Origin: a virus
IMG/VR virus record: IMGVR_UViG_3300050821_003278
Span: 1 to 45,786 of that record
DNA length: 45,786 nt
Reading direction: 5' to 3' (one strand)
The position numbers and the translations under genes were made by a program. The first letter of the stretch is position 1; each line of letters begins with the position of its first letter. Shown piece after piece: positions 1,070 through 45,253 of the stretch. The notes under the pieces are model-generated. The model saw only the letters and a program-made list of their open reading frames with translations, was not told the DNA's origin and searched no databases.

Positions 1070-1281
1070 CCGCCCGCGCCTTCAACGTCGGCGACCGCGC
1101 CCGGGTCAACCTCCCCGGGAACCGCGGCCACGGCCACACCGCCGTCGTCACGAACACCATCGGCGACCGGGGGCGCGGCGTTCCCGAGTACAACGTCGAC
1201 TACGACTACCCGAAGCCGGGCCTGGGGTCCGCGATCTGGCTGACCGGCGACCAGCTCGAGCCCGCCGGAGGTGCGCCGTGA
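1066..1281 (+). CDS. small hypothetical protein with a KOW/SH3-like fold signature
   Basis: 71 residues beginning at the ATG in the ATGA overlap at 1066. The opening V-G-D-R-A-R-V, a central VVTNTIGDRG and later hydrophobic-Tyr alternation resemble a small beta-barrel, and the protein is similar in style to the two repeats of the gene at 75-683. No catalytic residues stand out. It ends the first run of overlapping genes; an 81-bp gap with regulatory features follows. Confidence 0.6.
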   Translation: MTARAFNVGDRARVNLPGNRGHGHTAVVTNTIGDRGRGVPEYNVDYDYPKPGLGSAIWLTGDQLEPAGGAP

Positions 1282-1324
1282 CCGCCGCGGGCGCGGCGTG
1301 CTTTCGCGCCGGACGGGGCGCCGA

Positions 1325-1345
1325 TATCCTCAACATCACTGTTGA
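1325..1345 (+). promoter_or_regulatory. -10 box and dyad operator upstream of the HTH-repeat gene
   Basis: In the 81-bp gap before the gene at 1363, TATCCT at 1325-1330 matches an actinobacterial -10 box. A perfect 6-bp dyad, TCAACA-TCAC-TGTTGA, occupies 1330-1345 and touches that box. The following gene encodes a multi-HTH protein, so autoregulation through this dyad is a reasonable inference. No convincing -35 box was found. Confidence 0.4.
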
Positions 1346-1362
1346 CGAGGCTGGGAGGCGAG

Positions 1363-2109: not shown

Positions 2110-2400
2110 ATGGCACAGGCATACCTGACGACGGCCGACGTCGCCCACGAACTCGGGGTGCGGCCTGCGACCGTCAGTTCCTGGCGCACACGATCCCAGC
2201 CAGGGCAGCCGTATGCCGAGCACCCGTTTCCCGCCCCGGATGTCAAGATTGGCAACGCGTCGGGCTGGCTGCCGGAGCGCCTGCCGGAGATGCGCGCCTG
2301 GATGGCCGCGCGGCCCGGAATGGGCGTCGGTGGCGGTCCGAAGCCCAAGAGTCCAGAGACTCCGCCGAGGAAGCTTGCAGAGACTCCGCAAGGCGAGTAG
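2110..2400 (+). CDS. single-repeat HTH protein, paralogue of the preceding gene
   Basis: 96 residues, with an ATG directly after the TAG of the upstream gene (no gap), so the two are almost certainly translated together. Residues 5-68 match the module repeated three times upstream: LTTADVAHELGV (HTH), then HPFPAPD, then LPERLPEMRAWM. The tail is basic, Pro-rich and probably disordered. It may compete with, or form mixed complexes with, the three-repeat protein. Codon use is again less biased than in the neighbours. Confidence 0.72.
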   Translation: MAQAYLTTADVAHELGVRPATVSSWRTRSQPGQPYAEHPFPAPDVKIGNASGWLPERLPEMRAWMAARPGMGVGGGPKPKSPETPPRKLAETPQGE

Positions 2401-2424
2401 GTTCCGAAGTACAACATAAGAGCA

Positions 2425-2456
2425 GCCCCACCGAGTGTTCGAGCACTCAGTGGGGC
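2425..2456 (+). terminator. strong hairpin after the HTH pair
   Basis: The 13-nt arms GCCCCACCGAGTG and CACTCAGTGGGGC pair with one mismatch around a 6-nt loop. It lies 25 nt after the stop at 2400 and upstream of the antirepressor. There is no T tract, as is common in actinobacteria. It could terminate the HTH operon or act as an operator. Confidence 0.55.
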
Positions 2457-2501
2457 CTGAGCTCCAACCCCCAGCGTCTCAAGGCATCAAGGGTGGAACC
2501 T

Positions 2502-3341
2502 GTGGCCAATCTATCGGCCGTGCATTCTGCACGCCCAGAATCCCCGTCACTTTTCAGTAACGGCGAGTTCGAGATCCAGTTCATCCCGGACGGCTCGGCC
2601 TTCAAGGTCGTCGCGTCCGGACTCGCCAAGGCACTCGGATTCCGGTCCGCAGCCGACGTCGTCGAGAGTCTGCCGGACGTCGACAAGGGGTACGAGCTAG
2701 TCCGTACCCCCGGCGGCGACCAGCACGTCTGGGTCATCAGCGAGCCCGGTTTCTACCGGGCCATGGGTCAGCGCCAGGCCGCGCGGGTCAAGGATCTGGA
2801 GATTCGCGGCCAGGTCGAGCGGTTCCAGTCCTGGGTCTTCGGCGACGTCCTGCCGTCGATCCGCCGGACCGGCTCGTACTCGCCGACCCCCGCGCTCCCG
2901 CAGTCCTACGCCGACGCCCTGCGCGAACTCGCGGACGCCGTCGAGCAGCGAGACAACGCCGTGGCCGAGCTGGAGACCGCGAAGCCGAAGGCCGAAGCCT
3001 TCGACGCCTACCTCGCGGCCGACGACACGGACATGCTCCTGCGCACCGCCGCGAAACTCCTCGACACCACCGAGAAGAAGCTGCGCCGCCACCTCCTGGA
3101 CGCCGGATTCATCTTCTGGACCCGCAGCCACACCGCCTGTGGCCGCGCCCAGTACGAGCCCTACGCCGCACACCAGCAGAACGGCCTGTTCTCGCTGAAG
3201 AAGGTCACCGTCACCCACGAGACCTTCGGCGACTGCAACCACCAGACCGTGTACGTCACCCCCAAGGGCCTCGAAGCCGTCCGCCGCCACATGGCGAAGA
3301 CCGCCGTCCAGCCCGCCAGCGAGTTGGAGGCCACCCGATGA
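2502..3341 (+). CDS. phage antirepressor: BRO-N domain plus KilAC/ANT C-terminal domain
   Basis: About 279 residues. The start is taken at GTG 2502, with GGTGGA 4 nt upstream; GTG 2493 is an in-frame alternative. The frame is open far upstream to 1278, but that part overlaps the HTH genes and is not protein-like. The N-terminal half resembles BRO-N (EIQFIPDG, then AKALGF, then RGQVERFQSWVFGDVLPSIR). The C-terminal part matches the KilAC/ANT DNA-binding domain (LFSLKKV, QTVYVTPKGLEAVRRHM). A short coiled segment joins them. Such proteins antagonise phage repressors or act as DNA-binding regulators of lytic genes. The first 20 or so codons are AT-richer than the rest. It overlaps the next gene by ATGA. 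Confidence 0.85.
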   Translation: MANLSAVHSARPESPSLFSNGEFEIQFIPDGSAFKVVASGLAKALGFRSAADVVESLPDVDKGYELVRTPGGDQHVWVISEPGFYRAMGQRQAARVKDLEIRGQVERFQSWVFGDVLPSIRRTGSYSPTPALPQSYADALRELADAVEQRDNAVAELETAKPKAEAFDAYLAADDTDMLLRTAAKLLDTTEKKLRRHLLDAGFIFWTRSHTACGRAQYEPYAAHQQNGLFSLKKVTVTHETFGDCNHQTVYVTPKGLEAVRRHMAKTAVQPASELEATR

Positions 3342-4499: not shown

Positions 4500-5687
4500 G
4501 TGACACGGTTCCGGCTGACGCCCACTGCGACCCAGGAGCAGCTGCTCCTGACGCACTGCGCGCACGCCCGGTACGTGTGGAACCTGGCCGTCGAACAACA
4601 ATCCTGGTGGACGCGTCGGCGCGGCAAAGCGCCGAACTTCGCTCAGCAGTCCCGGCAACTCACGGAAGCTCGCGCGGAGTTCGAATGGCTCCGCGCCGGA
4701 TCGGTGACCGTGCAGCAGCAGGCGCTGCGGGACTTCGACCAGGCGATGCGGAATTTCTTCGGCGGCACCCACCGAAAGCCCACCTGGCGCAAGGCCGGGC
4801 AGCACGAAGGATTCCGGATCGTCGCGGTATCGCCGGAACATGTCCGGCGCCTGTCGCGCAATGTCGGCGAAGTGTTCGTCCCGAAGGTCGGCTGGGTGCG
4901 GTTCCGCTGGTCCCGCCCCGCAGCCAGCGCGAAGTCGTACCGGGTGACGCGGGACCGGTCCGGCCGCTGGCACGTTGCGTTCGCCACCATGCTTCCCGGC
5001 CCCGTTATGGCGCCCGGTACGGGAGAAATGGTTGGGGTGGACCGGGGCGTGGCCGTCTCGACGGCGCTGTCCACCGGGGAATTGCTGCGCTGCCCCGGGC
5101 TTCGCCCGAAGGAGGCCGAACGGCTGCTGCGGTTGCAGCGGCGCCTCGCGAAGGCCAAGCGCGGATCGAACCGGCGCGCTGGCCTGAAGCTCCGAATTGC
5201 CAAAATCAAGGGCGCCCAGTCCGATCGGCGCAAGGACTGGGTCGAGAAGACCAGCACCGACCTGGCGCGCCGTTTCGACGTGATCCGGTTCGAGGACCTG
5301 CGGATCGACGACATGACGAAGTCCGCGAAGGGAACCGTCGAGAAGCCGGGCGTGAACGTCCGGCAGAAGGCCGGACTGAACCGGGGCATCCTGTCGAACG
5401 GCTGGGGCCTGCTGCTTCAGCGGACGATCGACAAGGCCCCGGGCCGTGTCGAGCTGGTGAATCCCGCGTACACGTCTCAGACGTGCAACCGGTGCAAGGC
5501 GGTGGATGCGAAGTCGCGCAAGAGCCAAGCCCACTTCGCATGCACCACTTGCGGACATCGGGACCACGCCGACGTCAACGCGGCCAGGAACATCGCTACG
5601 GCCGCAGGGCATGCGGTCGCTGCGCGGGGAGGCGTCCGGTTGCGGGAGCCTGCGAACCGCGAACCTCAGCTCGCTGCGCTCGCGTAG
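4500..5687 (+). CDS. tnpB: TnpB RNA-guided endonuclease (element 1)
   Basis: 395 residues from the GTG at 4500. The N-terminal wedge region begins MTRFRLTPTATQEQ. The RuvC residues are D181 (VGVDRG), E265 (RFEDL) and D358 (DHADVNAARN). The zinc finger is C329-x2-C332 and C348-x2-C351. All catalytic residues are present, so the protein should be an active RNA-guided nuclease using an omega RNA from the element's right end. In IS605 elements TnpB cuts the donor joint and favours retention of the element. There is no RBS; TATAAT is 7 nt upstream. Not related closely to the TnpB at 12016. Confidence 0.9.
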   Translation: MTRFRLTPTATQEQLLLTHCAHARYVWNLAVEQQSWWTRRRGKAPNFAQQSRQLTEARAEFEWLRAGSVTVQQQALRDFDQAMRNFFGGTHRKPTWRKAGQHEGFRIVAVSPEHVRRLSRNVGEVFVPKVGWVRFRWSRPAASAKSYRVTRDRSGRWHVAFATMLPGPVMAPGTGEMVGVDRGVAVSTALSTGELLRCPGLRPKEAERLLRLQRRLAKAKRGSNRRAGLKLRIAKIKGAQSDRRKDWVEKTSTDLARRFDVIRFEDLRIDDMTKSAKGTVEKPGVNVRQKAGLNRGILSNGWGLLLQRTIDKAPGRVELVNPAYTSQTCNRCKAVDAKSRKSQAHFACTTCGHRDHADVNAARNIATAAGHAVAARGGVRLREPANREPQLAALA

Positions 5688-7405: not shown

Positions 7406-8317
7406 GTGAACAACCCCGATGGTAAAGCCAAGAAGCGCGGAAAGCCGAACACCACGACGGCGCCCGTCGCGCCCGTGCCAGAGAAGACCCGCCGCATCGT
7501 TCAGATCGGCGTCACCTTCGCGCTGCTGTGCGCCGCGGCACTGTCCGCGCCGACCCTCTACCTGTTCGCCAGGCTCATCGAGTTCCCGTCCGCGCTCGCA
7601 TGGCTGCTGCCCGCCTGCCTCGACGGGTACGCCGGCACGTCCATCTGGTTCGGGTCCCGCGTGGCCGTCGACCACCCGGCGCACCGCTCGGCCAAACGCA
7701 ACGCCCGCCTCGCCCTGGCCATGACCGTCGGCGCGAACGGCGGCTACCACCTCCTGATCCTCGCCGGCTCGATGCTCCCGCCGTGGGTGCGGATCGTGCT
7801 CCTGGTGGTCGTGTCCAGCCTGCCGCCGTTCATCGTCGACCGCCTGGTCCACCTCAACACGCTCGCCAGCGGGACCGCCGACGGCACCCTCGATGCCGCT
7901 GCCGCCGACACTCAGGCGCCGACGAAGCAGCGCCGCCCCGAAACGCCGACGGCACCCAGGACCGCCGACGTCATCGGCGCCACCGCCAGTGGCACCCCGC
8001 CGACGAAGGTGCCGCCGACGACAGTTGCCGTCGCCGACGAGACCGCCGATGGTACCGACACCGTCATCGACTTCGGTGCCGCCAGTGCCGCCGCACGCCT
8101 CAACATCGCCGACCGGGCCGCCGCCGCGCTGCCCCTGTATCGGCAGTACGTCCGCGCCAACAAGGTCAAGCCGTCGGCGCCACAACTCGCCGAGATCCTC
8201 GAGCGCGAGGGGCACGGAACCCTCGGCGTATCTCGCGCCCGCGACGTCCGCAAGGCCACCGAGGAGCTCTACGACGCCAACCCGAACGACCCCGAAGCGG
8301 CCAGGAAGGCGATCTGA
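7406..8317 (+). CDS. DUF2637-like membrane protein with a C-terminal HTH-like region
   Basis: 303 residues from the GTG at 7406, which has GAGGAG a few bases upstream. The alternative ATG at 7274 (ATGA overlap) would add 44 residues with less biased codons. The N-terminal part has spans around FALLCAAALSAPTLYLFA, AWLLPACLDGYAG and IVLLVVVSSLPPFIV, the pattern of DUF2637 proteins found beside FtsK-type transfer genes in Streptomyces elements. A Thr/Pro/Ala-rich linker follows. The last 70 or so residues (RAAAALPLYRQYV, QLAEILEREG) resemble an HTH used for recognition. The stop overlaps the next ATG by one base (TGATG). Probably a membrane partner of the translocase. Confidence 0.7.
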   Translation: MNNPDGKAKKRGKPNTTTAPVAPVPEKTRRIVQIGVTFALLCAAALSAPTLYLFARLIEFPSALAWLLPACLDGYAGTSIWFGSRVAVDHPAHRSAKRNARLALAMTVGANGGYHLLILAGSMLPPWVRIVLLVVVSSLPPFIVDRLVHLNTLASGTADGTLDAAAADTQAPTKQRRPETPTAPRTADVIGATASGTPPTKVPPTTVAVADETADGTDTVIDFGAASAAARLNIADRAAAALPLYRQYVRANKVKPSAPQLAEILEREGHGTLGVSRARDVRKATEELYDANPNDPEAARKAI

Positions 8318-10506
8318 TGGCCGCCGACACCACACGCCACAGCGCCACCACAGACCTTGATCTCCGACCCGGGTCGGCGGAACTGGTGTCCGACGAAGAC
8401 GATATGCAGTGGACCGACGACGCCCCGCAACTCCTGTCCGGGAACGTCATCCCAGCCCACAGCCCGTTCGCCCATGGGATCCACCCCGCCTATCAGGGCC
8501 TGCCGCTCCACGTCGCCGCACTCATCGACCACCACGAGCTGCCGCGGCCCGACCCGGAGATCATCGCCCTCATCCGGCGCTGGCACCTGTGGCCGGCCAT
8601 CGGGTCCTGCTCGTTCTCAGCGCTCGGCTGGTGGGCGAACCTGGAGCCCAACCACGTCTGGCTGATGCTGCCGTTCCTCGGGCTCGGCGTCCTGGGCCCG
8701 GTCGCCGGCTGGCTCGGGCACCTCGCCCACGGCGACGAAGCCGACCAGCACCTCACCCGCGGGCTGATCGTCGGCGGCGCCATCGGCATGTCCGGGGCCG
8801 CCGCCGTCGGCGCCGGGTTCTCCGGCTTCTCGGCGATGACCACCGCGCTCCTCGCCGCCGTCGGCACCCTCGGCTCGATCCAGTGGCGGCACCACCGCCG
8901 ACAGGCCGACCGCAACTTCATCATCGACTACACCGCCGCTGTCGCGACAGCGCCAATGCCGCCGGCGCCCATTGGCGGCACCGCGGCACCGATGGAGCTG
9001 ACGCAGCACGGGATCATGTCGGACGAGGCGCAGCGGCTGCACCAGGCGTTCGCCGCGATGGGCGTCTCCCCGATCACCGTGGACGTCATCCGCCGCTCCG
9101 GCCCCGACTCCTGGATGACCTTCGTGTACCTGCCCGAGTCCAAGTCGATGTCCCCGAAGACCCTCATCTCCCGGCTCGACGCCCTGCGGAACAACCTGCG
9201 CTGCCGGTCCGTCTCGGTGACGCCGACCGCCATCGGCAACCGGGTGCAGATCGCCGTCCAGGACGGCGCCGCCAGCCCGCTGTCCGAGACGATCCCCTGG
9301 GCCGGCCCGAACACCGACGACATCACCCAGCCGATCATCATCGGCAAGTTCGAGAACGGCGAACCCATCACCTTCAAACTCTCCGGCCGGCACACCATCT
9401 ACGCCGGAATCACCGAAGGCGGGAAATCCGGCGGCGTGAATGTCGCCGCCTGCTCCATCGCCGCGATGCGCAATGCCGTCATGGTCCTCATCGACTTGAA
9501 GCCGGGACAGCTGGAACTCGGCCCTTACGAGTCCGTCGCATACCGTTCGGCGGCGGGAATCGCCGACGCGACGCTTCTCCTGCAAGCCCTGATCGCCGCG
9601 ATGGACGCCCGCGGCGATCAGCTCAAGGCCGAACGCGAGGCCACCGGGCGCCCGGTCCGCGAGTGGGACCCGAACAACCCCAACCACGGCCCGGCCATCA
9701 TGGTGCTGATCGACGAACTCGCCGAGGCGCTGCGCCTGGACCCGAAGGTCTTCGAACTGTGGCTGCGGATCATGCAGGTCGGCCGGGCCCTGGGGATCTG
9801 GATCGTCGGCGCCACCCAGTCGCCGTCGGGCAAAGCCCTGGGCAACACCACCGACGGGTCCGGGCAGTTCACGAACATCGCCTGTTTCCGCACCAAGTCC
9901 GCCACCCAGACCAACGTCATCCTCGGCCCCGGCGCGCACGGCGACGGCTGGCGCGCCGACGAGACGACGCTCCCGGAGAAGGGCATGTTCCTGCCGCGCA
10001 CCCCGGAGTACCCGCAGCCGCACGTGGGCCGCGGCTGCTGGATCGACCCCGACCGGGTGATGGACGTCATCGCCGAATACAGGGACAAGCGGCCGGCGCT
10101 TGACGCCGGGACCGCGGAGGCGATGGAGACGATCCTGGGGGGCCGCTGCGACCCGTCGAACCCGACGCCGCCCGACGGCGGACGGCGCGCCGACGCGGTG
10201 GACGTCGCCAACGGCTACCACGCCGACGTCCGGTACCTGCACGCCGTGCCGGACCTGACGTACCCCGACGGCTCCACGGTCGAGGAGAAGGACCGCCAGG
10301 CGTGGAACCTGTTCATGTCGCTGGGGTCGTTGACGGTGTCGGAACTCCAGGCGCGCCGGCTCGTCGGCCTCACGTCGCCGACATCGGCCATGGCCATCCT
10401 GAGCTGCTTCGAGATCCACGACGGCGCGACACGGTCCCGCGACGAGGACGGACGCACCACACGGTTCACCTACACCCCGAAACAGAAGCAGCGGAAAGAC
10501 GCATGA
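8317..10506 (+). CDS. FtsK/SpoIIIE-TraB-like DNA translocase
   Basis: 729 residues. Hydrophobic segments at about residues 112-137 and 149-187 anchor it in the membrane. The motor domain follows, with Walker A GITEGGKSG (364-372) and Walker B IMVLIDELAE (D466, E467). An RTPEYPQPHVGRG segment precedes the C-terminal region, which may be a DNA-recognition or winged-helix part (ARRLVGLTSPTSAMAILSC). In actinomycete integrative conjugative elements a single FtsK-like protein moves double-stranded DNA between mycelia. Its close link to a DUF2637-like gene supports that role, although some phages also carry FtsK homologues. It overlaps the next gene by ATGA. Confidence 0.85.
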   Translation: MAADTTRHSATTDLDLRPGSAELVSDEDDMQWTDDAPQLLSGNVIPAHSPFAHGIHPAYQGLPLHVAALIDHHELPRPDPEIIALIRRWHLWPAIGSCSFSALGWWANLEPNHVWLMLPFLGLGVLGPVAGWLGHLAHGDEADQHLTRGLIVGGAIGMSGAAAVGAGFSGFSAMTTALLAAVGTLGSIQWRHHRRQADRNFIIDYTAAVATAPMPPAPIGGTAAPMELTQHGIMSDEAQRLHQAFAAMGVSPITVDVIRRSGPDSWMTFVYLPESKSMSPKTLISRLDALRNNLRCRSVSVTPTAIGNRVQIAVQDGAASPLSETIPWAGPNTDDITQPIIIGKFENGEPITFKLSGRHTIYAGITEGGKSGGVNVAACSIAAMRNAVMVLIDLKPGQLELGPYESVAYRSAAGIADATLLLQALIAAMDARGDQLKAEREATGRPVREWDPNNPNHGPAIMVLIDELAEALRLDPKVFELWLRIMQVGRALGIWIVGATQSPSGKALGNTTDGSGQFTNIACFRTKSATQTNVILGPGAHGDGWRADETTLPEKGMFLPRTPEYPQPHVGRGCWIDPDRVMDVIAEYRDKRPALDAGTAEAMETILGGRCDPSNPTPPDGGRRADAVDVANGYHADVRYLHAVPDLTYPDGSTVEEKDRQAWNLFMSLGSLTVSELQARRLVGLTSPTSAMAILSCFEIHDGATRSRDEDGRTTRFTYTPKQKQRKDA

Positions 10507-11240
10507 GCCGGCTGCGGAACCCCAGGAAAGCCGCCAAGCGCGAGATGCGCGCCCTCAAGACGTTCTACTCGCCCGGCCGCCTGCTGTCCCGCGCCGTCTT
10601 CAACGAGCCCACCTTCGGCCACCTCCGTAAGAAGATCGCCGGACCCACGACCGTCGCACGCATCACCCGCAACGCCGAAACCGGGAAGGTCACGTCCAAG
10701 GGCGTCCGCCGCACCGCCGAAGGATGGGCGATGACTCCGAAGAAGAAAAAGGCCGCACCGGAGAGCGGCACCGACAAACGCCGCGACGAACGGGACGCGG
10801 CACGGCAGTCCCGGCGCACCTCGGGCCGCGCGCCCGACATCTCCTCCGGCGACAAATCCCTGGCCCGGGACTTCAAGCAGGGCGCCGGCGGCCGGATGAA
10901 CGGCTCGGCCGCAGGCAAGAACGGCCTGCCGACGGTACGGCAGGCCACCGGGCTGACGCGCCTGGGCTGCCCGTGGTGCCGCTCGTCCGGGATGCGCCCC
11001 CTGTTCATCGGGGCCGGCCAGATCAAGACCGTCATCGCCGTGCAGCCGTGCAACCACCGCTGGTCGTCCCGGGACAACGGGCCCTCGCAGAAGCCGGCAG
11101 GCCCCAGAGACCAGTTCCTGTGCCCGCCGTGCGGGAACACCGGACAGCAGACCGTCACCACGACCCGTCACGCCGACGGTGCGGTTACCCGCGCGAAGAT
11201 TCGGTGCCTGACGTGCCAGGGCTGGATCGTCCACTGGTGA
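10503..11240 (+). CDS. zinc-ribbon protein downstream of the translocase
   Basis: 245 residues from the ATG in the ATGA overlap at 10503. The N-terminal half is very basic (TPKKKKAAPE, DKRRDERDAARQSRR) and probably disordered. The C-terminal half has two likely zinc sites: C-P-W-C with a following C-N-H, and C-P-P-C paired with C-L-T-C. The combination suggests a nucleic-acid-binding protein. Because it is co-transcribed with the FtsK-like gene it may assist DNA transfer; no named family was recognised. Confidence 0.6.
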   Translation: MSRLRNPRKAAKREMRALKTFYSPGRLLSRAVFNEPTFGHLRKKIAGPTTVARITRNAETGKVTSKGVRRTAEGWAMTPKKKKAAPESGTDKRRDERDAARQSRRTSGRAPDISSGDKSLARDFKQGAGGRMNGSAAGKNGLPTVRQATGLTRLGCPWCRSSGMRPLFIGAGQIKTVIAVQPCNHRWSSRDNGPSQKPAGPRDQFLCPPCGNTGQQTVTTTRHADGAVTRAKIRCLTCQGWIVHW

Positions 11241-11362
11241 TGGCCCGACTGCCCAACTTTCCCATTGCCTACCAGGCAGGCAACAGGACATCACTACCGG
11301 CGCCCGCGAACCGCAACCAGCATGGACGGCAGGAGACAAACCCCAGAGAAGGATCACAAGCT

Positions 11363-11749
11363 ATGACCGACATCACCATCACCTCGTTCGGCCACCTCCA
11401 CGGACCCGCGCCCGAAGCCGAGATCACCCTCGACCTGCGCCACCACTTCCGCGACCCGCACGTCAGCCCGGAACTACGCCACCTCACCGCCGACGACGAG
11501 GCGGTCCGCGAAGCAGTACGCACCACACCGGGAATCATGCCGCTCGTGGCCGCCGCCGCAGCGATGGCCCAGGCGTACCTGTCCGGACCGGGCGCGGCAG
11601 ACACGCCGGTGCGGATCGCCGCCGGATGCGCCGGCGGACGGCGCCGTGCCGCGTCCGTGGCGCTGGAGATCCGAGACGCGCTCGCGAAACTCGGAGTCGG
11701 CGCGACCATCGTCGACCGGGATTCGCACCGGGATGTCGTCGAGCGCTGA
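11363..11749 (+). CDS. stand-alone RapZ C-terminal-like domain
   Basis: 128 residues from the ATG at 11363 (upstream AGAAGGA). It parallels the C-terminal domain of RapZ. It begins I-T-S-F-G-H-L-H-G, continues with D-L-R-H-H-F-R-D-P-H and an L-T-A-D-D-E-A-V segment, then G-C-A-G-G-R-R-R-A-A-S-V in place of the RapZ GCTGGxHRSV loop, and ends with D-S-H-R-D-V. The N-terminal P-loop kinase-like half of RapZ is absent. RapZ is an RNA-binding adaptor, and its C-terminal half contacts RNA. What a lone domain does in a mobile element is unknown; RNA binding is inferred. Confidence 0.7.
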   Translation: MTDITITSFGHLHGPAPEAEITLDLRHHFRDPHVSPELRHLTADDEAVREAVRTTPGIMPLVAAAAAMAQAYLSGPGAADTPVRIAAGCAGGRRRAASVALEIRDALAKLGVGATIVDRDSHRDVVER

Positions 11750-11770
11750 CAGGAGGACGTAACGCGCAAG

Positions 11771-11790
11771 CCCCGTCGTTCACGGCGGGG
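11771..11790. repeat. left-end hairpin of TnpB element 2
   Basis: CCCCGTCG (11771-11778) pairs with CGGCGGGG (11783-11790), with one G-T wobble, around the loop TTCA, the same loop as in element 1. The stop codon of the minus-strand Phd-like gene (11780-11782) lies in the loop, again as in element 1. Confidence 0.75.
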
Positions 11791-11974
11791 TTAGCGCATC
11801 ACCTTCGGCGCGCGATTCCTGCCCGGTCCGCCGTTCCTGCCACCACGCATAGGGGACCAGCACGGCCCTGGGCTCACCGTTCTTCTCCACGACCGTGTGT
11901 TGGCCGAGGAAGTGCGCGGCATCGACGCGGCGCCCGAGTTGGTCGCGTAATTCGCGGGTTTGCATTCTCTCCAT
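11780..11974 (-). CDS. Phd/YefM-like antitoxin, divergent from tnpB
   Basis: 64 residues from the ATG at 11974; the ATG at 11965 is an alternative and the frame is open to 12007. The sequence T-R-E-L-R-D-Q-L-G-R-R-V, then V-V-E-K-N-G-E-P-R-A-V-L-V-P, is the Phd/YefM fold signature: an N-terminal DNA-binding and dimer region with the beta-turn N-G-E-P. The C-terminal toxin-binding tail is short and no toxin gene lies nearby. A minus-strand -10-like TACCAT ends 6 nt before 11974, suggesting a leaderless mRNA. Likely role: repressor of the shared promoter region with tnpB. Confidence 0.72.
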   Translation of the reverse strand: MERMQTRELRDQLGRRVDAAHFLGQHTVVEKNGEPRAVLVPYAWWQERRTGQESRAEGDALTPP

Positions 11975-11980
11975 GCGCCA

Positions 11981-12016
11981 ATGGTACAACCGGGTTCGAT
12001 GGTACACTTGGTACCA
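11981..12016. promoter_or_regulatory. overlapping divergent promoters with three TGGTAC-type operator repeats
   Basis: TACACT (12003-12008) lies 7 nt before the tnpB ATG. Minus-strand TACCAT (plus-strand ATGGTA, 11981-11986) lies 6 nt before the Phd-like ATG. Three related motifs overlap both boxes: TGGTACA at 11982-11988 and 12000-12006, and the palindrome TGGTACCA at 12009-12016. YefM-type antitoxins are known to bind TGTACA-core sites, so these are strong operator candidates. Confidence 0.6.
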
Positions 12017-13272
12017 TGCAGCTTCGGTACAACTTCCGCCTCGATCCGACGCCGGGCCAGGTCGCGGACCTGGCCCGCGCGTTCGGGTGCGCGCGGGTCG
12101 TGTTCAACGACGGACTGGCGCTGCGGCGCAAGTTGTATACCGAGGGTCTGCCGTATCTTCCGGACGTCGAGCTTCAGCGTCGCGTTGTCACAGAGGCCAA
12201 GCGGACCGACGAGCGGGCGTGGCTGGCCGAAGTGTCTTCGGTGGTGCTGGTCCAGGCCCTCGGGGACCTGCACGCCGCCTACCGGAACTTCTTCGCCTCG
12301 GCCGCCGGAAAGCGCAAGGGCCCGAAGGTCCGCGAACCCCGGTTCCGGTCCCGGAAGGACAACCGGCAGGCGATCCGGCTCACCCGCAACGGCTTCGGCC
12401 TGCGTGCCAACGGACGCCTGTACCTGGCGAAGATCGGCGAGGTTGCGGTTCGCTGGTCCCGCGAGCTGCCGTCGGACCCGTCCAGCGTGACGGTAGTCAA
12501 GGACGCCTCGGGCCGGTACTTCGCCTCGTTCGTCGTCCAAACCGACCCGGCGGCGGATCTCACCAGGTTCCCGCCGGACCCGGACGCCTACGCGGAGACA
12601 GGCATAGATCTCGGCCTCACCCACTTTGCGGTGCGTGACAACGGCGAGAAGATCGACGCGCCGAAGTTCCTGCGCAAGGCCGAGCGCCGCCTCAAACACC
12701 TCCAGCGATCCCTGGCCCGCAAACAGAAAGGCTCGAACAACCGCACCAAGGCCGTGCTCAAGGTCGCGAAAGCACACGTTGAGGTCGCCGATGCCCGCCG
12801 GGACTTCCACCACAAGCTCTCCACACAGATCATCCGCGAGAACCAAGCGGTGTACGTGGAAGACCTCGCGGTGAACGGCCTGGCCCGGACCAGACTGGCC
12901 AAGAGTGTCCACGACGCCGGCTGGTCCAGTTTCGTGAACATGCTGGAGTACAAGGCCGCCCGGTACGGCCGGACCTTCGCGAAGGTCGACCGGTGGGCGC
13001 CGACTTCGCAGGTGTGTTCTGCGTGCGGCGTGAAGGACGGACCGAAGCCGCTGAACGTCAGGGAGTGGACGTGCGCCGCGTGCGGTGCGGCCCTGGACCG
13101 GGATGTGAACGCGGCGAAGAACATCCTCACCCTTGGAAGGCAAGTCGCGGCGGGACGCGCCGAGACTCAAAACGCCTGTGGAGACCAGGTAAGACCGGGA
13201 CCCGTTCCGGCGCAGGTCCGTGAAGCAGGAACCCGCCGAGGCGATCGGGGAGCACCATGCCCGACGCGGTAG
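12016..13272 (+). CDS. tnpB: TnpB RNA-guided endonuclease (element 2)
   Basis: 418 residues from the ATG at 12016; the frame is open upstream to 11626 but that part overlaps other features. RuvC residues are D198 (TGIDLGLT), E282 (YVEDL) and D363 (LDRDVNAAKN). The zinc finger is C334-x2-C337 and C353-x2-C356. All catalytic residues are intact. The last 45 or so residues are low in structure and overlap the expected omega RNA. There is no RBS, and a -10-like box sits 7 nt upstream. Belongs to a different TnpB lineage from the gene at 4500 (N-terminus MQLRYNFRLDPTPGQ). Confidence 0.9.
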   Translation: MQLRYNFRLDPTPGQVADLARAFGCARVVFNDGLALRRKLYTEGLPYLPDVELQRRVVTEAKRTDERAWLAEVSSVVLVQALGDLHAAYRNFFASAAGKRKGPKVREPRFRSRKDNRQAIRLTRNGFGLRANGRLYLAKIGEVAVRWSRELPSDPSSVTVVKDASGRYFASFVVQTDPAADLTRFPPDPDAYAETGIDLGLTHFAVRDNGEKIDAPKFLRKAERRLKHLQRSLARKQKGSNNRTKAVLKVAKAHVEVADARRDFHHKLSTQIIRENQAVYVEDLAVNGLARTRLAKSVHDAGWSSFVNMLEYKAARYGRTFAKVDRWAPTSQVCSACGVKDGPKPLNVREWTCAACGAALDRDVNAAKNILTLGRQVAAGRAETQNACGDQVRPGPVPAQVREAGTRRGDRGAPCPTR

Positions 13273-19924: not shown

Positions 19925-20452
19925 GTGAGCGAAACCATCCTCCGCAAGCGGCGCCCGGTACCGCCGGTCGGCAGCTACTTCGTCGTTCGAATCCACGGCT
20001 TCGTGCCCTGGGTCATCCGCGCGGCCACCCACACGTGGGCCGACCACGCCGGCATCGTCATCGACGACCACGGCGGCATCATCGAAGCCGAACCCGGCGG
20101 CGTCCGCAAAGCCCACATCGGCCAATACACCGGCTGCCGCATGGCCGTCAACCTCGGCGAGACCATGACCGACCAGCAGCGGGCCGTCGTCGCCGACGAA
20201 GCCCAACGGCTCATCGGCGTCGCCTACAACGACATGGACATCGCCGACCTCGGGCTCGAAGCCCTCGGGTGGCACTGGCGGCTCCTCGCCAAACTGGCCG
20301 CCGGAGACCACGAACTCATCTGCTCGGCGCTCGTCGCGACCGTCGGCGGCAAAGCAGGGATCGACTGGATGTGCGGCAAGACCGCGGCCAGCGAAGTCAC
20401 GCCCGCCGACCTCGCCAAACGGCCCGGCATGCAGCCGTGGCCTCCCGGCTGA
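19925..20452 (+). CDS. permuted NlpC/P60-like (YiiX/YebB-type) cysteine hydrolase
   Basis: 175 residues from the GTG at 19925. The likely catalytic His is in T-W-A-D-H-A-G-I-V-I (about residue 41) and the Cys in E-L-I-C-S-A-L-V-A (about residue 138). This His-before-Cys order is the circularly permuted papain-like arrangement of YiiX/YebB proteins. There is no signal peptide. Enzymes of this type cleave amide bonds in peptidoglycan, lipids or proteins. Position just before TerS is unusual for a lysin, so the substrate is open. Confidence 0.7.
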   Translation: MSETILRKRRPVPPVGSYFVVRIHGFVPWVIRAATHTWADHAGIVIDDHGGIIEAEPGGVRKAHIGQYTGCRMAVNLGETMTDQQRAVVADEAQRLIGVAYNDMDIADLGLEALGWHWRLLAKLAAGDHELICSALVATVGGKAGIDWMCGKTAASEVTPADLAKRPGMQPWPPG

Positions 20453-30265: not shown

Positions 30266-31336
30266 GTGGCCGTCACGGAACCGGCATACATAACCCGAGA
30301 GGCCGTCGCCAAAGCTCTCGACGTCAAGATGACCGCCCGGTCCAACGACGACATCGACCGCGCCATCCAGTCCGCGTCCCGCAAGATCGAGGGCCAGCTG
30401 CACCGCAGGTTCTACCCGCTGGACGCCACACATTTCTGGCCGTGGCCGAACTACCAGTACCGGTTCCCGTGGACGCTCGACTTCGACAAGTGGGAACTCG
30501 CGGCGATCCCCACTGCGCCCAACGCCGTCCAGACCGGCGGCCAGACGATCCCGCTGGCGAACATCTTTTTTGAGCCCGTCAACGAAGGCCCCCCGTACAC
30601 CTACCTCGAGCTGAACCGGGCTAGCAGCAGCAGCTTCGGCGTCGGCACCACACCCCAGCGGAACATCTCCGTCACCGGAACATTCGGCTACAGCACGGCC
30701 ACAGCGCCAGCCGGGGCTCTGGTTTCTGCGGTCATCGACACCACGGGAACGTCGATCGCCGTCACCAACGGTGCCGCAGCAGGAGTCGGGGACGTCCTGC
30801 TCATCGACGGCGAGCGCATGCTGCTGACCGAAAAGGCCACCGCCACCACCTGGCAGACGCAGCAAGGGTCCGGCTGCTCCACCAACTCCGGTAACGACGT
30901 CACCCTGGCCGTCACGTTGGGCGCCACCATCTACGCCGGCGAGACCCTGCAACTCGACAGCGAACGCATGCTCGCCGTCGATGTCACCGGCAACAACGTC
31001 ACCGTCAAACGCGGCTGGGACGGCACCGTCCCGGCCGCCCACTCCGGAGCGACGGTCTACGCCCTGCGGTCCTGGACGGTAACCCGCGGCACCCTGGGCA
31101 CTGCAGCGGCCACACACAACAGCGCCGTGCCGGTCGTCAAGTTCACCCCGCCGTCGCTGATCGTCCAGTACGCGCTCGCCGAGGCCGAGAACGACCTGCT
31201 GCAAGGGCTGTCCGGGTACGCCCGCACAGTCGGGTCCGCGGACAACGCCCGGCCCGTCTCCGGCCAGGCGCTCGCTGACATCCGCGCCCAGGCCTACGCC
31301 CAGTACGGACGCAAGGGCAGGAAGCGCACGGTATGA
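30266..31336 (+). CDS. head-tail connector (gp6-like) with an inserted beta domain
   Basis: 356 residues from the GTG at 30266. The N-terminal (about 1-150) and C-terminal (about 280-356) parts match a gp6/HK97 connector: ITREAVAKALDV, AIQSASRKIEGQLHRRFYP, then ALAEAENDLLQG. Between them, about 155-280, is a beta-rich insertion with two internal repeats (DVLLIDGERML, then LQLDSERMLAVDV) and a V-K-R-G-W-D-G-T turn. The connector ring would join portal and tail. The insertion is longer than usual. Confidence 0.75.
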   Translation: MAVTEPAYITREAVAKALDVKMTARSNDDIDRAIQSASRKIEGQLHRRFYPLDATHFWPWPNYQYRFPWTLDFDKWELAAIPTAPNAVQTGGQTIPLANIFFEPVNEGPPYTYLELNRASSSSFGVGTTPQRNISVTGTFGYSTATAPAGALVSAVIDTTGTSIAVTNGAAAGVGDVLLIDGERMLLTEKATATTWQTQQGSGCSTNSGNDVTLAVTLGATIYAGETLQLDSERMLAVDVTGNNVTVKRGWDGTVPAAHSGATVYALRSWTVTRGTLGTAAATHNSAVPVVKFTPPSLIVQYALAEAENDLLQGLSGYARTVGSADNARPVSGQALADIRAQAYAQYGRKGRKRTV

Positions 31337-31734
31337 GCGAGGACATCGAGGTCAAGTTCTCGGGCGCACTGTTCGACGGGCGCGCAGAAGAGGCGATGCG
31401 CAAACTCGCCGAGGACTGCCAGGACAAGGTCGCGAAAGCCGCAGAAGACACCTGGCAGGACAACATGGATGCCGCATTCCGGCATCCCACCCCCAAATAT
31501 CAGCTGTTCGTGAACATCGCCCACCGGGACAAGGATCTGGTCGTCAATGACGGCTGGCCGGAATCCGGACTGAAATACGGGCTCTGGCTCGAAGGCGTCG
31601 GCTCCCGCAACGCGCCGGTCACCGTGTTCCCCGGCTACTTCTCACTCAAGCGTGCCGGCGAGACGGTCCGGCGAGACCTTGACGCGATCACGCAGCCGAT
31701 CGTCGACAAGTACGTCCGCGAGGCCAACGGATGA
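31333..31734 (+). CDS. tail completion / minor head protein (HK97 gp10-like)
   Basis: 133 residues, ATG in an ATGA overlap. A helical N-terminal half (AEEAMRKLAEDCQDKVAKAA) is followed by a mixed C-terminal half with a G-L-K-Y-G-L-W-L-E motif and FPGYFSLKRAG. Position between connector and tail terminator supports a neck or tail-completion role. Assignment by order and shape. Confidence 0.65.
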   Translation: MSEDIEVKFSGALFDGRAEEAMRKLAEDCQDKVAKAAEDTWQDNMDAAFRHPTPKYQLFVNIAHRDKDLVVNDGWPESGLKYGLWLEGVGSRNAPVTVFPGYFSLKRAGETVRRDLDAITQPIVDKYVREANG

Positions 31735-40657: not shown

Positions 40658-41203
40658 GTGACCGCCCGCGCCGTCCCCGTACTGCCGTTCTTCCTGGCCG
40701 GACTGAAGGCGCGCGCTTCGTACTTCGTTTCCCTCGAGTCGTATATGCAGTTCTGGGCCAACCCGCCGATGTTCTCGATGTACCAGTCGATCACGCAGTC
40801 GGTGGCCTCCAGCACCAACGCCCAGATCACCATGGACACCCTGGACTACGACAGCGACAGCGGCCGGGCGTCGGTCACCCCGTGGTCCTACACCATCCCG
40901 CCCGGCATGGGCGGACGCTGGTACTTCGGTGCCATGATCTCCTGGGCCGGCAACGCCACCGGCGTGCGGATCTCCCAGATCTACAAGAACGGCGCCCTGA
41001 TCAACGGCGCGCAGGAAGCGGTCCAGGCCGCACCGGCAACCAACGCCACCAACTGTTTCATCGGCAGGACCGTCGCGGTGAGCGCCGGCGACGCCATCTC
41101 CGCATACGGGTGGCAGCAGTCCGGCGGCGCGCTGAACACGAACGTCGCCAACAGCTTCCCGTCATTCTTCGAGGGGCGCCTCGTCTCGCTGGGCAACCCA
41201 TAA
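40658..41203 (+). CDS. minor tail protein with a C1q-like jelly-roll
   Basis: 181 residues from the GTG at 40658. From about residue 55 the sequence T-M-D-T-L-D-Y-D-S, then YTIPPGMGGRWYFGAMISW, then VRISQIYKNGALI resembles the C1q/TNF-like jelly roll found in phage fibre heads. The N-terminal part is hydrophobic (VLPFFLAGLKARASYFV) and may be a helix. Possibly a receptor-binding or fibre protein. Confidence 0.6.
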   Translation: MTARAVPVLPFFLAGLKARASYFVSLESYMQFWANPPMFSMYQSITQSVASSTNAQITMDTLDYDSDSGRASVTPWSYTIPPGMGGRWYFGAMISWAGNATGVRISQIYKNGALINGAQEAVQAAPATNATNCFIGRTVAVSAGDAISAYGWQQSGGALNTNVANSFPSFFEGRLVSLGNP

Positions 41204-41217
41204 CGAAAGGGCGCGTT

Positions 41218-41505
41218 ATGCGAAACGATGTGCACGGCTGCCACCGCTGCGGTGGAACACCGGCGTTCCAATGGACGCGGCTGGCGACCGACGAAGAGGC
41301 AACAAGTCAGCGGGCTGAGATTGCCGTTCTACAGGACCGTCCCCTGTCGGACGAGGAAATCGTGTTGAAGTACGGGCCGTTGCGTATCGCGGTCTATGGC
41401 TGCGCCGAGCACGACCTGGGCGATATCAATCTGCGCACGCTGGTGCATGCGGCACGGTGCCAGGGCCACGGCTCCTGCGCGTGCGACAGCGACACGGCAC
41501 GTTGA
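41218..41505 (+). CDS. small Cys-rich protein in the tail region
   Basis: 95 residues from the ATG at 41218 (GAAAGGG upstream). It has C-H-R-C-G-G near the start, Y-G-C-A-E-H in the middle and C-Q-G-H-G-S-C-A-C near the end, spacing that suggests one or two zinc sites. Stop overlaps a TTG that may start the next gene (TTGA). Function unknown; regulatory or structural. Confidence 0.6.
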   Translation: MRNDVHGCHRCGGTPAFQWTRLATDEEATSQRAEIAVLQDRPLSDEEIVLKYGPLRIAVYGCAEHDLGDINLRTLVHAARCQGHGSCACDSDTAR

Positions 41506-41543: not shown

Positions 41544-41981
41544 ATGACCCTGTGGCTGCGACCGGCAGTCTTCGGCGCAGCCGACGGCCTGACGTGCGCC
41601 CTCGGCGCGATCCTGTCGCTCGCCGGGCATTCCGAACTAGTTCTGCGCACCGCGGTGGCGTTGGCTGCGGCCGAGTGCGTGGGCATGGCGGCCGGCGAGT
41701 GGCTGTCGGAGTCCGGCAGCGGGTTCCGGGCGTCCGCGGTGATCGGTCTGGCGACCGGCGTAGGCGGTGCGCTGCCCGCGCTGCCGTATGCGTGGCTCGC
41801 AGGGTCGGCTGCAGTGTGGTCGTCGGTGGCCGTGTTCGTGGCGTGCGCCGGGTTGATCACGTGGGCGCGTTCCGGGCAGCGCGGCTGGCGTCGGGCCGCG
41901 GCCGAGACCTACGGGGTGCTAGCGGTCGTGGCCGTAGCCGTGGCGCTTTCCCAACTGGCACTGCCGTCCGGCAGCCACTGA
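41544..41981 (+). CDS. VIT1/CCC1-family-like membrane protein
   Basis: 145 residues from the ATG at 41544; the TTG at 41502, overlapping the upstream stop (TTGA), would add 14. The N-terminal part V-F-G-A-A-D-G-L-T, then L-G-A-I-L-S-L-A-G, then G-M-A-A-G-E-W-L-S-E-S matches the first helices of VIT1/CCC1 iron and manganese transporters, including the MxxGExxS motif. About four to five spans fit (further ones at GLATGVGGALPALPYAW, AVFVACAGLITW and GVLAVVAVAVALSQLAL). The cytosolic metal-binding insertion of plant VIT1 is missing. The family moves Fe2+ or Mn2+ across membranes; whether this phage copy transports is unknown. Confidence 0.7.
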   Translation: MTLWLRPAVFGAADGLTCALGAILSLAGHSELVLRTAVALAAAECVGMAAGEWLSESGSGFRASAVIGLATGVGGALPALPYAWLAGSAAVWSSVAVFVACAGLITWARSGQRGWRRAAAETYGVLAVVAVAVALSQLALPSGSH

Positions 41982-42040
41982 CCTTCCGTACCGCGGCGCC
42001 GCCCCGAGCATGCCCCTTCGCGATCCCGTAGGAGGCTGGC

Positions 42041-45000
42041 ATGCCACTCCCGTCCGGCGTAGGCACATGCGCGGTCACCGGCACCTACCTGGACGCCGAA
42101 GGCAACGCGGTCGCCGGGTCGGTCGTGTTCTACCTGAGCGTGCCGCTCATCGACGCCACCGACCATGTGATCGTGACGCCGGGACCGTATACGGCAACGC
42201 TGGTATCCGGGGCGTTCTCGCTGCGGCTGCCGTTCACCGACAACGCCGACGTGCAGCCGGCCGGGTTCTCCTACCAGGTGTTCGAACAGGTCCCCGGCGG
42301 TCGCAGCTTCTACATCCAGCTGCCGTCGGCGCTGGGATCGACGGTGGACCTCTCGACACTGGCGGCTTCAGCAGTACCGTCACAGCCGATATGGGGCGCC
42401 CTGTACGGGCAGCTTGCCGCGGCAAACACCTGGGCTGCGGCGAACGTGTTCGCGAGCAACGTCACAGTCGCCGGCACGCTGACTCTCGGCCACGACCCGA
42501 CGCTGGCCGCGCAGGCCGCCACCAAGAACTACGTGGACACCCATGGCGGAGCCGGCAGCGGCCTGATCGCTGCGAACAACCTGTCCGACGTCGCCAGCGC
42601 ATCGACGTCTCGCACCAACCTGGGCCTGGGTGGCGCGGCGACCCTCAGCGTCGGCACCGCCTCGGGGACGGTGGCCGCCGGAGACGACAGCCGCATCGCC
42701 GGCGCCGCACAGAAGTCGGCGAACCTGGCCGACCTCGCGAGCGCATCCACGGCACGCGGCAGCCTTGGCCTCGGCGGCGCCGCCGTGCTGTCCGTCGGTA
42801 CCACCAGCGGCACGGTCGCGGCCGGGAACGACTCCCGGATCACCGGGGCAATTCAGCCCGCGAACGCCGCCACCACCATCGTCACAGAGACCGGCTACGG
42901 CCAGTCGTCCGCGGTCGGCGTCGACACCACCTACGCCCGCGAGGATCACACCCACGGATCGCCGTCGCTGACCGGCGCCGCACCGTCCGCCACCGAGGGC
43001 ATCGGGCAAGCCGCAGCCCTCGGCGTCGCGACGACCCCGGCCCGCGCCGACCATGTTCACCCGCTCGCCGCCGCAGGGAGCCCGCACGCCTCGGCGGTCG
43101 GTGACGCGCAGGCGACGGGTTCGGCCACCACGTTCGCGACTTCCGACCACGTCCATGCCCGCGAGGCGTTCGCCGCTCCGGCATCGGCGACCAGCTACGG
43201 CCTGCCGGCAGTCACCGGCACCGCGGCGACGCTCGCGCACTCCGACCACACCCACGGCACGCCGGCCCTGACCACGAGCCCCCCGGCGACCACGATGGCG
43301 ATCGGCACCGCCGCCGCCCTCGGCACTGCGGTGCTGCCCGCGCTGGCCGACCACGTCCACCCGATGGCGGCGGCGGCCACGCCGACGGCTTCGGCGGTCG
43401 GTGACGCTGCCGCCGTTGGTGCCGCGACGACGTTCGCTTCGTCTAGCCATGTCCACGGCCGTGAGGCTTTCGGTACGGTCAGCGCGCTCGCCGCGTTCGG
43501 CACCAGCTCGGCCAACGGCACGGCGACGACCGTCAGTCACTCCGACCACCAGCACGGCGCGCCGGCGCTACCCTCCGCGACGACATCGACCGCCGGCATC
43601 ATCGGGCTTGACGGAACCGCCGGCGATATCGCAGCGCTCGGAATCCAGGCTGCGGGTGCGGTCGGGAAAGCGGCCGACGCCGGCCACGTCCACCCGACCA
43701 CGGGGCTCGTCACGTCCTTGAACGGCAGTTCTGGTGCGGTGACGGCGCTCAACGCGCTGATCCCCACCGGGGTGAAAACGTCGGCGTATACCGCAGCCCC
43801 CGGCGACCTCGTGCCGGTCAACACCACCTCCGGGACGGTCGCGATCGCGCTGCCGCCGGCTCCGGCGGACCGGACTGTCGTCGCGGTCAAGCACGTCATC
43901 CAGGGCGGCGCGAACACGGTCACCGTGAACTGCGGCGGGTCGGACGTGTTCAACAAGGCCGGCGGCGGCACCAGCGCGACTCTCGCACTGCCCAGCCAGG
44001 CGATCTTCGTGCAGTATGCCGCCGCATCCGGGATCTGGTACGTCCTGTCCGACGACCTGCCGCTGCCCCAGCTGGACCTGCGGTATGCACAGTTGTCGAA
44101 CAACCTGTCCGACCTGACGTCGGCGAGCACGGCGCGCACGAATCTAGGCCTCGGTACGGCGGCCGTCGAGGCCGTGAACACAACCGCCGGAACGATCACG
44201 GCATTGGGCGTGCAGGCCGCAGGGGCCTCTGGTCAGGTGGCCGACGCCGGGCATGTCCATCCGACGACCGGCGTGGTGCTCACCTCCGCAGCGGCGACCA
44301 CCGTGCAGGCCGGGACCAGCTACGGCACCGCATCCGCCGTCGGCACCGACCTGACGTTCGCTCGCGAGGATCACCAGCACGGCACCGTCGCTCTCACCTC
44401 GTCAGCACCGGCAACCACCGAAGGCATCGGACAAGCCGCCGCCGTCGGCACTGCCACCACACCGGCGCGCGCAGACCACGTCCACCCGCTGGCCGCCTCG
44501 GCCACCGCCGGCGCCAGCGCCGTCGCGGACACCGCCTCGGCAGGCTCGGCCACGACGTTCGCAGCCTCCGACCACCGGCACAGCCGAGAAGCGTTCGGGT
44601 CGGTGACGGCCAACACCGTCTGGGGTGCGGCATCGGCGAACGGCTCGGCCACCACAGTCGCCCGCTCCGACCACACCCATGGACTGCCGGACGCCTACAC
44701 CTACGACACCCCGGCGCAGCGCGGCCTGTCCGAGTGGAACTTCCCGATCGCCGGGGCGTACCTGGGGACGCAGACCCTGGTGTCCGGCACCATCTACGGG
44801 GTCAGCCTCATCGCGCAGACCAACAACACCGTGAGCAACATTTGCGTCTCGGTGCAGACGCAGGCCGTGTCGCCGACTACCGGCCAGAACCTGATGGCCC
44901 TGTACTCGGTCTCCGGGACCACCTGGACGCAGATCGGCATCACCGGCGACCTGGGCGTGTGGGGGTCCGGCCAGTTCAACCCATTCGCCATGGGCGGCTC

Positions 45001-45253
45001 GGTGACGCTGGTCCGCGGCAACCCCTACGTGGTGCTGATCCTTTCGGTGGCCGGGACCGCCGTGAAACTCAACGGCAACCAGTCCCCGACGCAGACGTGG
45101 TTCAACACCGGCTGCGGCATCACCGGCAGCCCGTGGCGGCGAATCTTCACCGGCGGAACCACGCAGACCGCGCTCCCGTCGCCATCGTTCTCGGCGACCG
45201 GCACGACCATGTCCACCACCGCGACCTTGAACCCCTGGGTCGCGCTCAGCTAG
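42041..45253 (+). CDS. long tail fibre with thirteen HxH motifs
   Basis: 1,070 residues from the ATG at 42041 (AGGAGG upstream). Residues 1-110 form a beta-sandwich (TGTYLDAEGNAVAGSVVFYL) likely to attach to the tail. Then come phage-fibre repeats (NNLSDVASASTSRTNLGLGG). From residue 300 to 880 thirteen HxH motifs occur, mostly as D-H-x-H (for example ARADHVHPL and SDHTHG). The last 190 residues are a beta-rich head (TLVSGTIYGVSLIAQTNNTV, YVVLILSVAGTAVKLNG). Fibres with HxH motifs, such as T4 gp37, bind iron along the trimer axis; metal binding here is inferred. Confidence 0.85.
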   Translation: MPLPSGVGTCAVTGTYLDAEGNAVAGSVVFYLSVPLIDATDHVIVTPGPYTATLVSGAFSLRLPFTDNADVQPAGFSYQVFEQVPGGRSFYIQLPSALGSTVDLSTLAASAVPSQPIWGALYGQLAAANTWAAANVFASNVTVAGTLTLGHDPTLAAQAATKNYVDTHGGAGSGLIAANNLSDVASASTSRTNLGLGGAATLSVGTASGTVAAGDDSRIAGAAQKSANLADLASASTARGSLGLGGAAVLSVGTTSGTVAAGNDSRITGAIQPANAATTIVTETGYGQSSAVGVDTTYAREDHTHGSPSLTGAAPSATEGIGQAAALGVATTPARADHVHPLAAAGSPHASAVGDAQATGSATTFATSDHVHAREAFAAPASATSYGLPAVTGTAATLAHSDHTHGTPALTTSPPATTMAIGTAAALGTAVLPALADHVHPMAAAATPTASAVGDAAAVGAATTFASSSHVHGREAFGTVSALAAFGTSSANGTATTVSHSDHQHGAPALPSATTSTAGIIGLDGTAGDIAALGIQAAGAVGKAADAGHVHPTTGLVTSLNGSSGAVTALNALIPTGVKTSAYTAAPGDLVPVNTTSGTVAIALPPAPADRTVVAVKHVIQGGANTVTVNCGGSDVFNKAGGGTSATLALPSQAIFVQYAAASGIWYVLSDDLPLPQLDLRYAQLSNNLSDLTSASTARTNLGLGTAAVEAVNTTAGTITALGVQAAGASGQVADAGHVHPTTGVVLTSAAATTVQAGTSYGTASAVGTDLTFAREDHQHGTVALTSSAPATTEGIGQAAAVGTATTPARADHVHPLAASATAGASAVADTASAGSATTFAASDHRHSREAFGSVTANTVWGAASANGSATTVARSDHTHGLPDAYTYDTPAQRGLSEWNFPIAGAYLGTQTLVSGTIYGVSLIAQTNNTVSNICVSVQTQAVSPTTGQNLMALYSVSGTTWTQIGITGDLGVWGSGQFNPFAMGGSVTLVRGNPYVVLILSVAGTAVKLNGNQSPTQTWFNTGCGITGSPWRRIFTGGTTQTALPSPSFSATGTTMSTTATLNPWVALS
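42926..44690 (+). repeat. repeated HxH fibre modules
   Basis: Within the fibre gene, an approximately 80-codon module occurs three times (about 42926-43170, 43234-43473 and 44355-44598). Its order is D-H-x-H-G, then EGIGQAAALG or a variant, then A-D-H-V-H-P, then SATTFATS and S-(D/S)-H-x-H-x-R-E-A-F. Further single HxH copies lie between and after. Copies differ at many third positions, so they are not recent identical duplications. Confidence 0.7.

What the first reader, a model, noticed from the sequence alone, without database searches (positions are those of the whole stretch)
41544..45253. VIT-like metal transporter homologue beside an HxH-rich fibre
A membrane protein with the VIT1/CCC1 signature (VFGAADGL, GMAAGEWLSES) sits in the tail operon just upstream of a fibre with thirteen HxH motifs, the type that holds iron in T4 gp37. 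Co-location suggests the phage may manage iron or manganese for fibre assembly, or change host metal traffic during infection. I do not recall a described phage VIT-fibre pair.
Basis: partly seen in the sequence, partly recalled or inferred. Interest (0 to 1): 0.7.

Follow-up and report, generated by a model that had tools for sequence, protein, structure and literature searches.

The report
Stripped-down iron-transporter homologue in phages
A phage, probably of a soil actinobacterium, carries a real but shortened relative of vacuolar iron transporters; related phages carry the same gene elsewhere in the genome, and 66 viral contigs with similar histidine-rich tail fibres lack it, so its place beside such a fibre is most likely coincidence.

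Summary
Window 41544-41981 encodes a 145-aa membrane protein above Pfam's VIT1 cut-off, with a confident model that superposes on the plant iron transporter EgVIT1 (Z 17.7, 2.2 A, 144 residues). The next gene is a 1070-aa fibre with 13 HxH motifs (shuffles average about 1). The protein is a mini-VIT: all five membrane helices and the metal residues Asp43 and Met80 are kept, but the cytoplasmic metal-binding domain (about 72 residues) is missing and Glu72 is lost, as in plant VTL proteins. Nine further viral contigs carry relatives; dN/dS is 0.03-0.29 in the best-sampled group, so the protein is maintained. The proposed VIT-fibre pair is not supported. In syntenic relatives the gene lies about 10 kb upstream, between two head-tail genes that directly overlap in the window. 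None of the nine shows an HxH-array fibre beside it, and none of 66 contigs with such fibres encodes a VIT. Best reading: a movable late 'moron' gene that probably works like a VTL-type Fe2+/Mn2+ exporter in the host membrane. Transport is inferred, not shown. I found no earlier report of a phage VIT and no close cellular homologue.

The parts
41544..41981 (+). mini-VIT: 145-aa, five-helix VIT/CCC1-family membrane protein without the metal-binding domain (alternative start TTG 41502)
   Evidence: Pfam PF01988 45 bits, above cut-off; model pLDDT 84, EgVIT1 Z 17.7, rmsd 2.2; conserved viral family
41583..41585 (+). codon of Asp14, equivalent of EgVIT1 Asp43 (TM1 metal ligand)
   Evidence: invariant in the viral family and in two full-length bacterial VITs
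41685..41687 (+). codon of Met48, equivalent of EgVIT1 Met80 (TM2 metal ligand)
   Evidence: invariant in the viral family and in two full-length bacterial VITs
41218..41505 (+). upstream neighbour, 95-aa Cys/His-rich small protein, no family match
   Evidence: ORF reading; no Pfam or PHROGs hit
42041..45253 (+). tail fibre, 1070 aa, 13 HxH motifs
   Evidence: PHROGs tail fibre E 8e-14; HxH count and shuffles
42947..43693 (+). first HxH array of the fibre (8 motifs, residues 303-551)
44252..44680 (+). second HxH array of the fibre (5 motifs, residues 738-880)
40658..41203 (+). virion structural protein, tail module
   Evidence: PHROGs 13989 E 1.6e-13
30266..31734 (+). two head-tail genes (30266-31336 and 31333-31734) that overlap by 4 bases here; syntenic relatives carry the mini-VIT between their homologues
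   Evidence: blastp synteny, clearest in L005 and L006; PHROGs head-tail adaptor

Best explanation
The gene encodes a minimal VIT/CCC1-fold membrane protein carried as a movable cargo ('moron') gene in the late structural region of a group of phages that probably infect actinobacteria. Most likely it inserts in the host membrane with the N-terminus inside and works like the plant VTL transporters that lack the metal-binding domain: a dimer with a cavity that binds divalent metal through Asp14 and Met48 and passes Fe2+ or Mn2+ out of the cytoplasm, perhaps in exchange for protons. That would lower free iron during late infection, limiting oxidative damage or iron-dependent host functions. Shown: VIT fold and family, domain deletion, kept ligands, purifying selection among relatives, varying genomic position, no linkage to HxH fibres. 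Inferred: transport, substrate, direction, and benefit to the phage. The neighbouring HxH fibre is an ordinary tail fibre, independent of it.
For: PF01988 above cut-off. The model fits EgVIT1 over 144 residues at 2.2 A, Z 17.7 against 8.1 for the best unrelated chain. Asp43 and Met80 equivalents are invariant in the viral family and in bacterial VITs; both are essential in EgVIT1 (PMC10794610). Loss of the metal-binding domain and of Glu72 matches plant VTLs, which still rescue yeast ccc1 and load vacuoles with iron (PMC4215979; PMC10794610). Positive charges sit on the predicted inner loops: 6 K/R inside, 0 outside. dN/dS 0.03-0.29 among the complete copies L003-L006. Synteny shows different insertion sites. 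No linkage to HxH fibres in either direction.
Against: No transport was measured. Glu72, proposed proton carrier of EgVIT1, is Leu40; a Glu one helical turn on (Glu44) might replace it but is Ser in L009. The R6-E52 pair (salt bridge in VTLs) is missing in L007 and L011. In Rhodococcus phage WC1 infection the host VIT gene is repressed and iron import induced (PMC10986025), the opposite of adding an exporter. Such a small protein could have lost transport.
Confidence: 0.5

Rival explanations
1. Functional VIT-fibre pair: the transporter supplies or adjusts iron or manganese for the HxH fibre.
For: The genes are adjacent in this window; HxH motifs bind iron in T4 gp37, as cited in PMC11705849.
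Against: No HxH-array fibre seen beside the VIT in nine relatives; no VIT in 66 HxH-fibre contigs; the gene lies at a head-tail site in syntenic relatives; known VITs export metal from the cytoplasm, where the fibre folds.
Confidence: 0.05
2. The VIT fold has been co-opted as a holin-like or other membrane-perturbing late protein, or for superinfection exclusion, without specific metal transport.
For: Small late membrane protein; in relatives it sits near other small membrane proteins, a potassium-channel-like one in L003 and a DUF1003-like one in L010; the metal-binding domain is gone.
Against: The metal ligands Asp and Met are exactly the residues kept; no recognised lysis gene is next to it in the window, and neighbours in L010 and L011 gave no lysis family hit.
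Confidence: 0.25
3. Metal importer, or exporter of another ion, that helps the phage in a different way from iron lowering.
For: Direction and substrate cannot be read from the sequence; phage WC1 infection raises host iron import (PMC10986025).
Against: The VIT/VTL members described in the papers read move metal out of the cytoplasm.
Confidence: 0.15
4. Decaying, non-functional capture from a host VIT.
For: Large internal deletion; the copy in L010 is split by a frameshift.
Against: Low dN/dS and intact frames in the other copies; the same deletion is shared by divergent members; no close cellular homologue.
Confidence: 0.05

Closest known systems
EgVIT1 (Eucalyptus VIT1, PDB 6iu3/6iu4), VIT/CCC1 family PF01988
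   Same: Five-helix fold, Asp43 and Met80 ligands, same predicted topology
   Different: Window protein lacks the H1-H3 metal-binding domain and Glu72; 24% identity
Plant VTL (vacuolar iron transporter-like) proteins, e.g. MtVTL8, AtVTL1
   Same: No metal-binding domain, Glu72 lost, Asp and Met kept, Arg/Glu pair of TM1-TM2 present in the window protein
   Different: Even shorter TM2-TM3 loop (no cytoplasmic helix); in a phage; clade membership not tested
Bacterial full-length VIT1/CCC1 proteins (e.g. Deinococcus psychrotolerans plasmid, L100)
   Same: 26-29% identity for the two compared, invariant Asp, Met and two Pro
   Different: They keep the metal-binding domain and the TM2 Glu
VIT1 genes of giant viruses (tree listed in PMC7162819)
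   Same: VIT carried by a virus
   Different: Eukaryotic hosts; no sequence comparison was made here beyond weak fold matches to viral proteins
T4 gp37 and Alteromonas phage R22Y gp12 HxH fibres
   Same: Several HxH motifs in a tail fibre
   Different: Spacing 32-35 residues here against about 22 for four of the R22Y motifs; metal not shown; no link to VIT

Membership tests
VIT/CCC1 family (PF01988) | Score above the curated Pfam cut-off | tested here: met
   45 bits against 28.1; 6 of 9 relatives also above it
VIT/CCC1 family (PF01988) | Five-helix VIT fold | tested here: met
   Predicted model, EgVIT1 Z 17.7, rmsd 2.2, 144 aligned
VIT/CCC1 family (PF01988) | Asp43 and Met80 metal ligands | tested here: met
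   Asp14 and Met48
VIT/CCC1 family (PF01988) | Metal transport | not testable with these tools
   needs an assay
VIT1 subfamily with metal-binding domain | Cytoplasmic metal-binding domain H1-H3 | tested here: not met
   about 72 residues absent
VIT1 subfamily with metal-binding domain | Glu72 in TM2 | tested here: not met
   Leu40 at that place
VTL subfamily | No metal-binding domain, Glu72 lost, Asp and Met kept | tested here: met
VTL subfamily | TM1 Arg and TM2 Glu pair (R51-E100 of MtVTL8) | tested here: met
   R6 and E52 in the window protein; absent in L007 and L011
VTL subfamily | Single cytoplasmic helix between TM2 and TM3 | tested here: not met
   5-residue loop in the model
VTL subfamily | Placement in the VTL clade | not tested
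   no VTL sequences in hand
HxH iron-binding fibre (T4 gp37 type) | Repeated HxH motifs beyond chance | tested here: met
   13 against 0.96 expected
HxH iron-binding fibre (T4 gp37 type) | Bound iron in a trimer | not testable with these tools
   needs metal analysis or a structure

The most novel reading that the evidence does not exclude
Phages carry a minimal, five-helix iron/manganese exporter without any metal-binding domain, a mobile late gene by which the phage actively changes host metal content during infection, and the smallest working version of the VIT fold.
Probability: 0.35. Interest if true: 0.6.

Novelty: new variant of a known kind. Interest (0 to 1): 0.38.

Why it matters
If it transports metal, it would add metal efflux to the ways phages change their hosts and give a minimal model for how VTL-type transporters work without the metal-binding domain and the TM2 glutamate, an open point in the plant work. 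The negative result also matters: the adjacency of a 'metal transporter' and a 'metal fibre' in one genome looks coincidental when searched both ways.

Tried and rejected
VIT-fibre linkage: rejected by two-way search. Close relatives in 50,697 phage records: none by tblastn with three mini-VITs, a 57-residue EgVIT1 fragment or a full bacterial VIT. Close relatives in 84,980 bacterial/archaeal genomes and in plasmids: none of the mini type; these scans depend on exact seed patterns or tblastn, so distant cellular VTL-like proteins are not excluded. Foldseek alone listed no PDB VIT1 chain in its first 50 rows; the second look by VIA-align did. An apparent HxH-rich ORF in L009 (8 motifs) has most of them in a basic tail that reads like a frame-shifted stretch, not a fibre array. 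A lysis-cassette reading of L010 and L011 found no family support. The HxH array alone found nothing in annotated phages by tblastn, perhaps because of the low-complexity filter. Papers: no phage VIT found. Redundancy among the 66 fibre contigs was not removed, so the effective number is lower.

Full report
What is there. The open frame 41544-41981 gives 145 residues; the fibre at 42041-45253 gives 1070. The VIT stop and the fibre start are 59 bases apart, with an AGGAGG-type ribosome site before the fibre. No tRNA lies in the window. The window is a virus record of 45,786 bases. Its nearest annotated tail relatives are Streptomyces phages, so an actinobacterial host is likely but inferred.

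The membrane protein is a VIT. Pfam PF01988 scores 45 bits (cut-off 28.1). The match has two parts, profile 1-57 and 132-208, which leaves out the metal-binding domain. Aligned with two full-length bacterial VITs, the viral proteins lack about 72 residues between helix 2 and helix 3. A profile of eight viral members finds EgVIT1 in the PDB by sequence (E 0.0016). The predicted structure (mean pLDDT 84) has five membrane helices and superposes on EgVIT1 over 144 residues at 2.2 A, Z 17.7, while the next, unrelated chain has 8.1. A predicted model can lean on known folds, so this supports the sequence evidence but does not replace it.

Residues. By the EgVIT1 alignment, Asp43 is Asp14, Met80 is Met48, Glu72 is Leu40, Arg35 is Arg6 and Gly84 is Glu52. 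The MtVTL8 study reports that Asp43, Met80 and Glu72 are essential in EgVIT1, that VTLs lack the metal-binding domain and Glu72, and that VTLs have a TM1 Arg/TM2 Glu pair (PMC10794610). The window protein therefore has the VTL pattern, with a shorter loop than VTLs. Asp14 and Met48 are invariant across the viral family and the bacterial proteins. Positive charges lie on the predicted cytoplasmic loops (6 against 0).

The family. Nine other viral contigs carry relatives at 41-55% identity over the matched segment. Among the four complete, closely related copies (L003-L006) dN/dS is 0.03-0.29, so the protein is maintained. The L010 copy is broken by a frameshift. No relative was found in annotated phages, plasmids or one genome each of 84,980 prokaryote species with the seeds used; a full bacterial VIT found nothing in the phage records either. 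No paper on a phage VIT was found. Giant viruses are recorded with VIT1 (PMC7162819).

Linkage to the fibre. The fibre's 13 HxH motifs are real and far above chance. Yet among the nine VIT contigs, searching with the fibre finds only one with a similar fibre, G008/L010, whose matches end about 32 kb before the VIT and whose best part holds one HxH. Several of these contigs are short, so their own fibres may lie outside; but where the VIT neighbourhood is seen it is not a fibre. Conversely a scan for the HxH array gave 66 viral contigs, 55 of them with three or more DHxH motifs in one frame; none encodes a VIT, although the same Pfam search rings in the window and in all nine relatives. Many contigs are fragments, but 16 are over 40 kb. 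Four annotated actinophages with related tail proteins also lack VIT.

Gene order. L003-L006 are syntenic with the window over capsid, head-tail genes and tape measure, and L007 and L008 over the head-tail genes. There the mini-VIT lies between the homologues of window 30266-31336 and 31333-31734 (both flanks seen in L005 and L006), genes that overlap by four bases in the window. So related phages carry the same gene at different sites in the late region, as expected of cargo. In L003-L006 the next gene downstream overlaps the VIT stop and encodes a His/Cys-rich membrane protein; in L003 a potassium-channel-like membrane protein follows. Upstream lies a DUF6527 protein in L003 and L009. None of these is next to the VIT in the window.

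Function. By analogy with VTLs, which restore iron tolerance in yeast ccc1 and raise vacuolar iron (PMC4215979), the most likely activity is export of Fe2+ or Mn2+ from the cytoplasm. This is inference. The absence of Glu72 leaves proton coupling open; Glu44, one helical turn on, is a candidate replacement but is not universal. Against an exporter role, infection by Rhodococcus phage WC1 represses the host VIT and raises iron import (PMC10986025).

Verdict. Observation confirmed, VIT identity confirmed, pair with the fibre not supported, host metal effect possible. The interest lies in a conserved, minimal VIT in phages.

Noticed in passing
window 4500-5687 and 11626-13272: Two IS605-type OrfB/TnpB genes (Cas12f1-like TNB domain) in one phage contig.
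   Followed up: no
window 10724-11749: Protein with a RapZ C-terminal domain (E 1.5e-19), overlapping the second TnpB reading frame.
   Followed up: no
window 7528-10506: FtsK/SpoIIIE-type ATPase in the non-structural half.
   Followed up: no
window 1278-3341: Antirepressor-like protein with KilAC and a weak Bro-N match.
   Followed up: no
L003 6777-7346: Small phage membrane protein above Pfam's cut-off for the Ion_trans_2 channel family, near the mini-VIT in this group.
   Followed up: partly
L003 5238-5798, L009 7412-7978: DUF6527 protein directly upstream of the mini-VIT in two divergent phages; not so in the window.
   Followed up: partly
L004 2-838 and 3481-4767: Two separate genes both match the window's major head protein.
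   Followed up: no
L010 8000-8428: Mini-VIT copy on a 202-kb contig is split by a frameshift, either sequencing error or decay.
   Followed up: partly
window 19925-20452: Gene matches a PHROG labelled enoyl-CoA hydratase-like (E 2.4e-12), a label that looks doubtful for its sequence.
   Followed up: no
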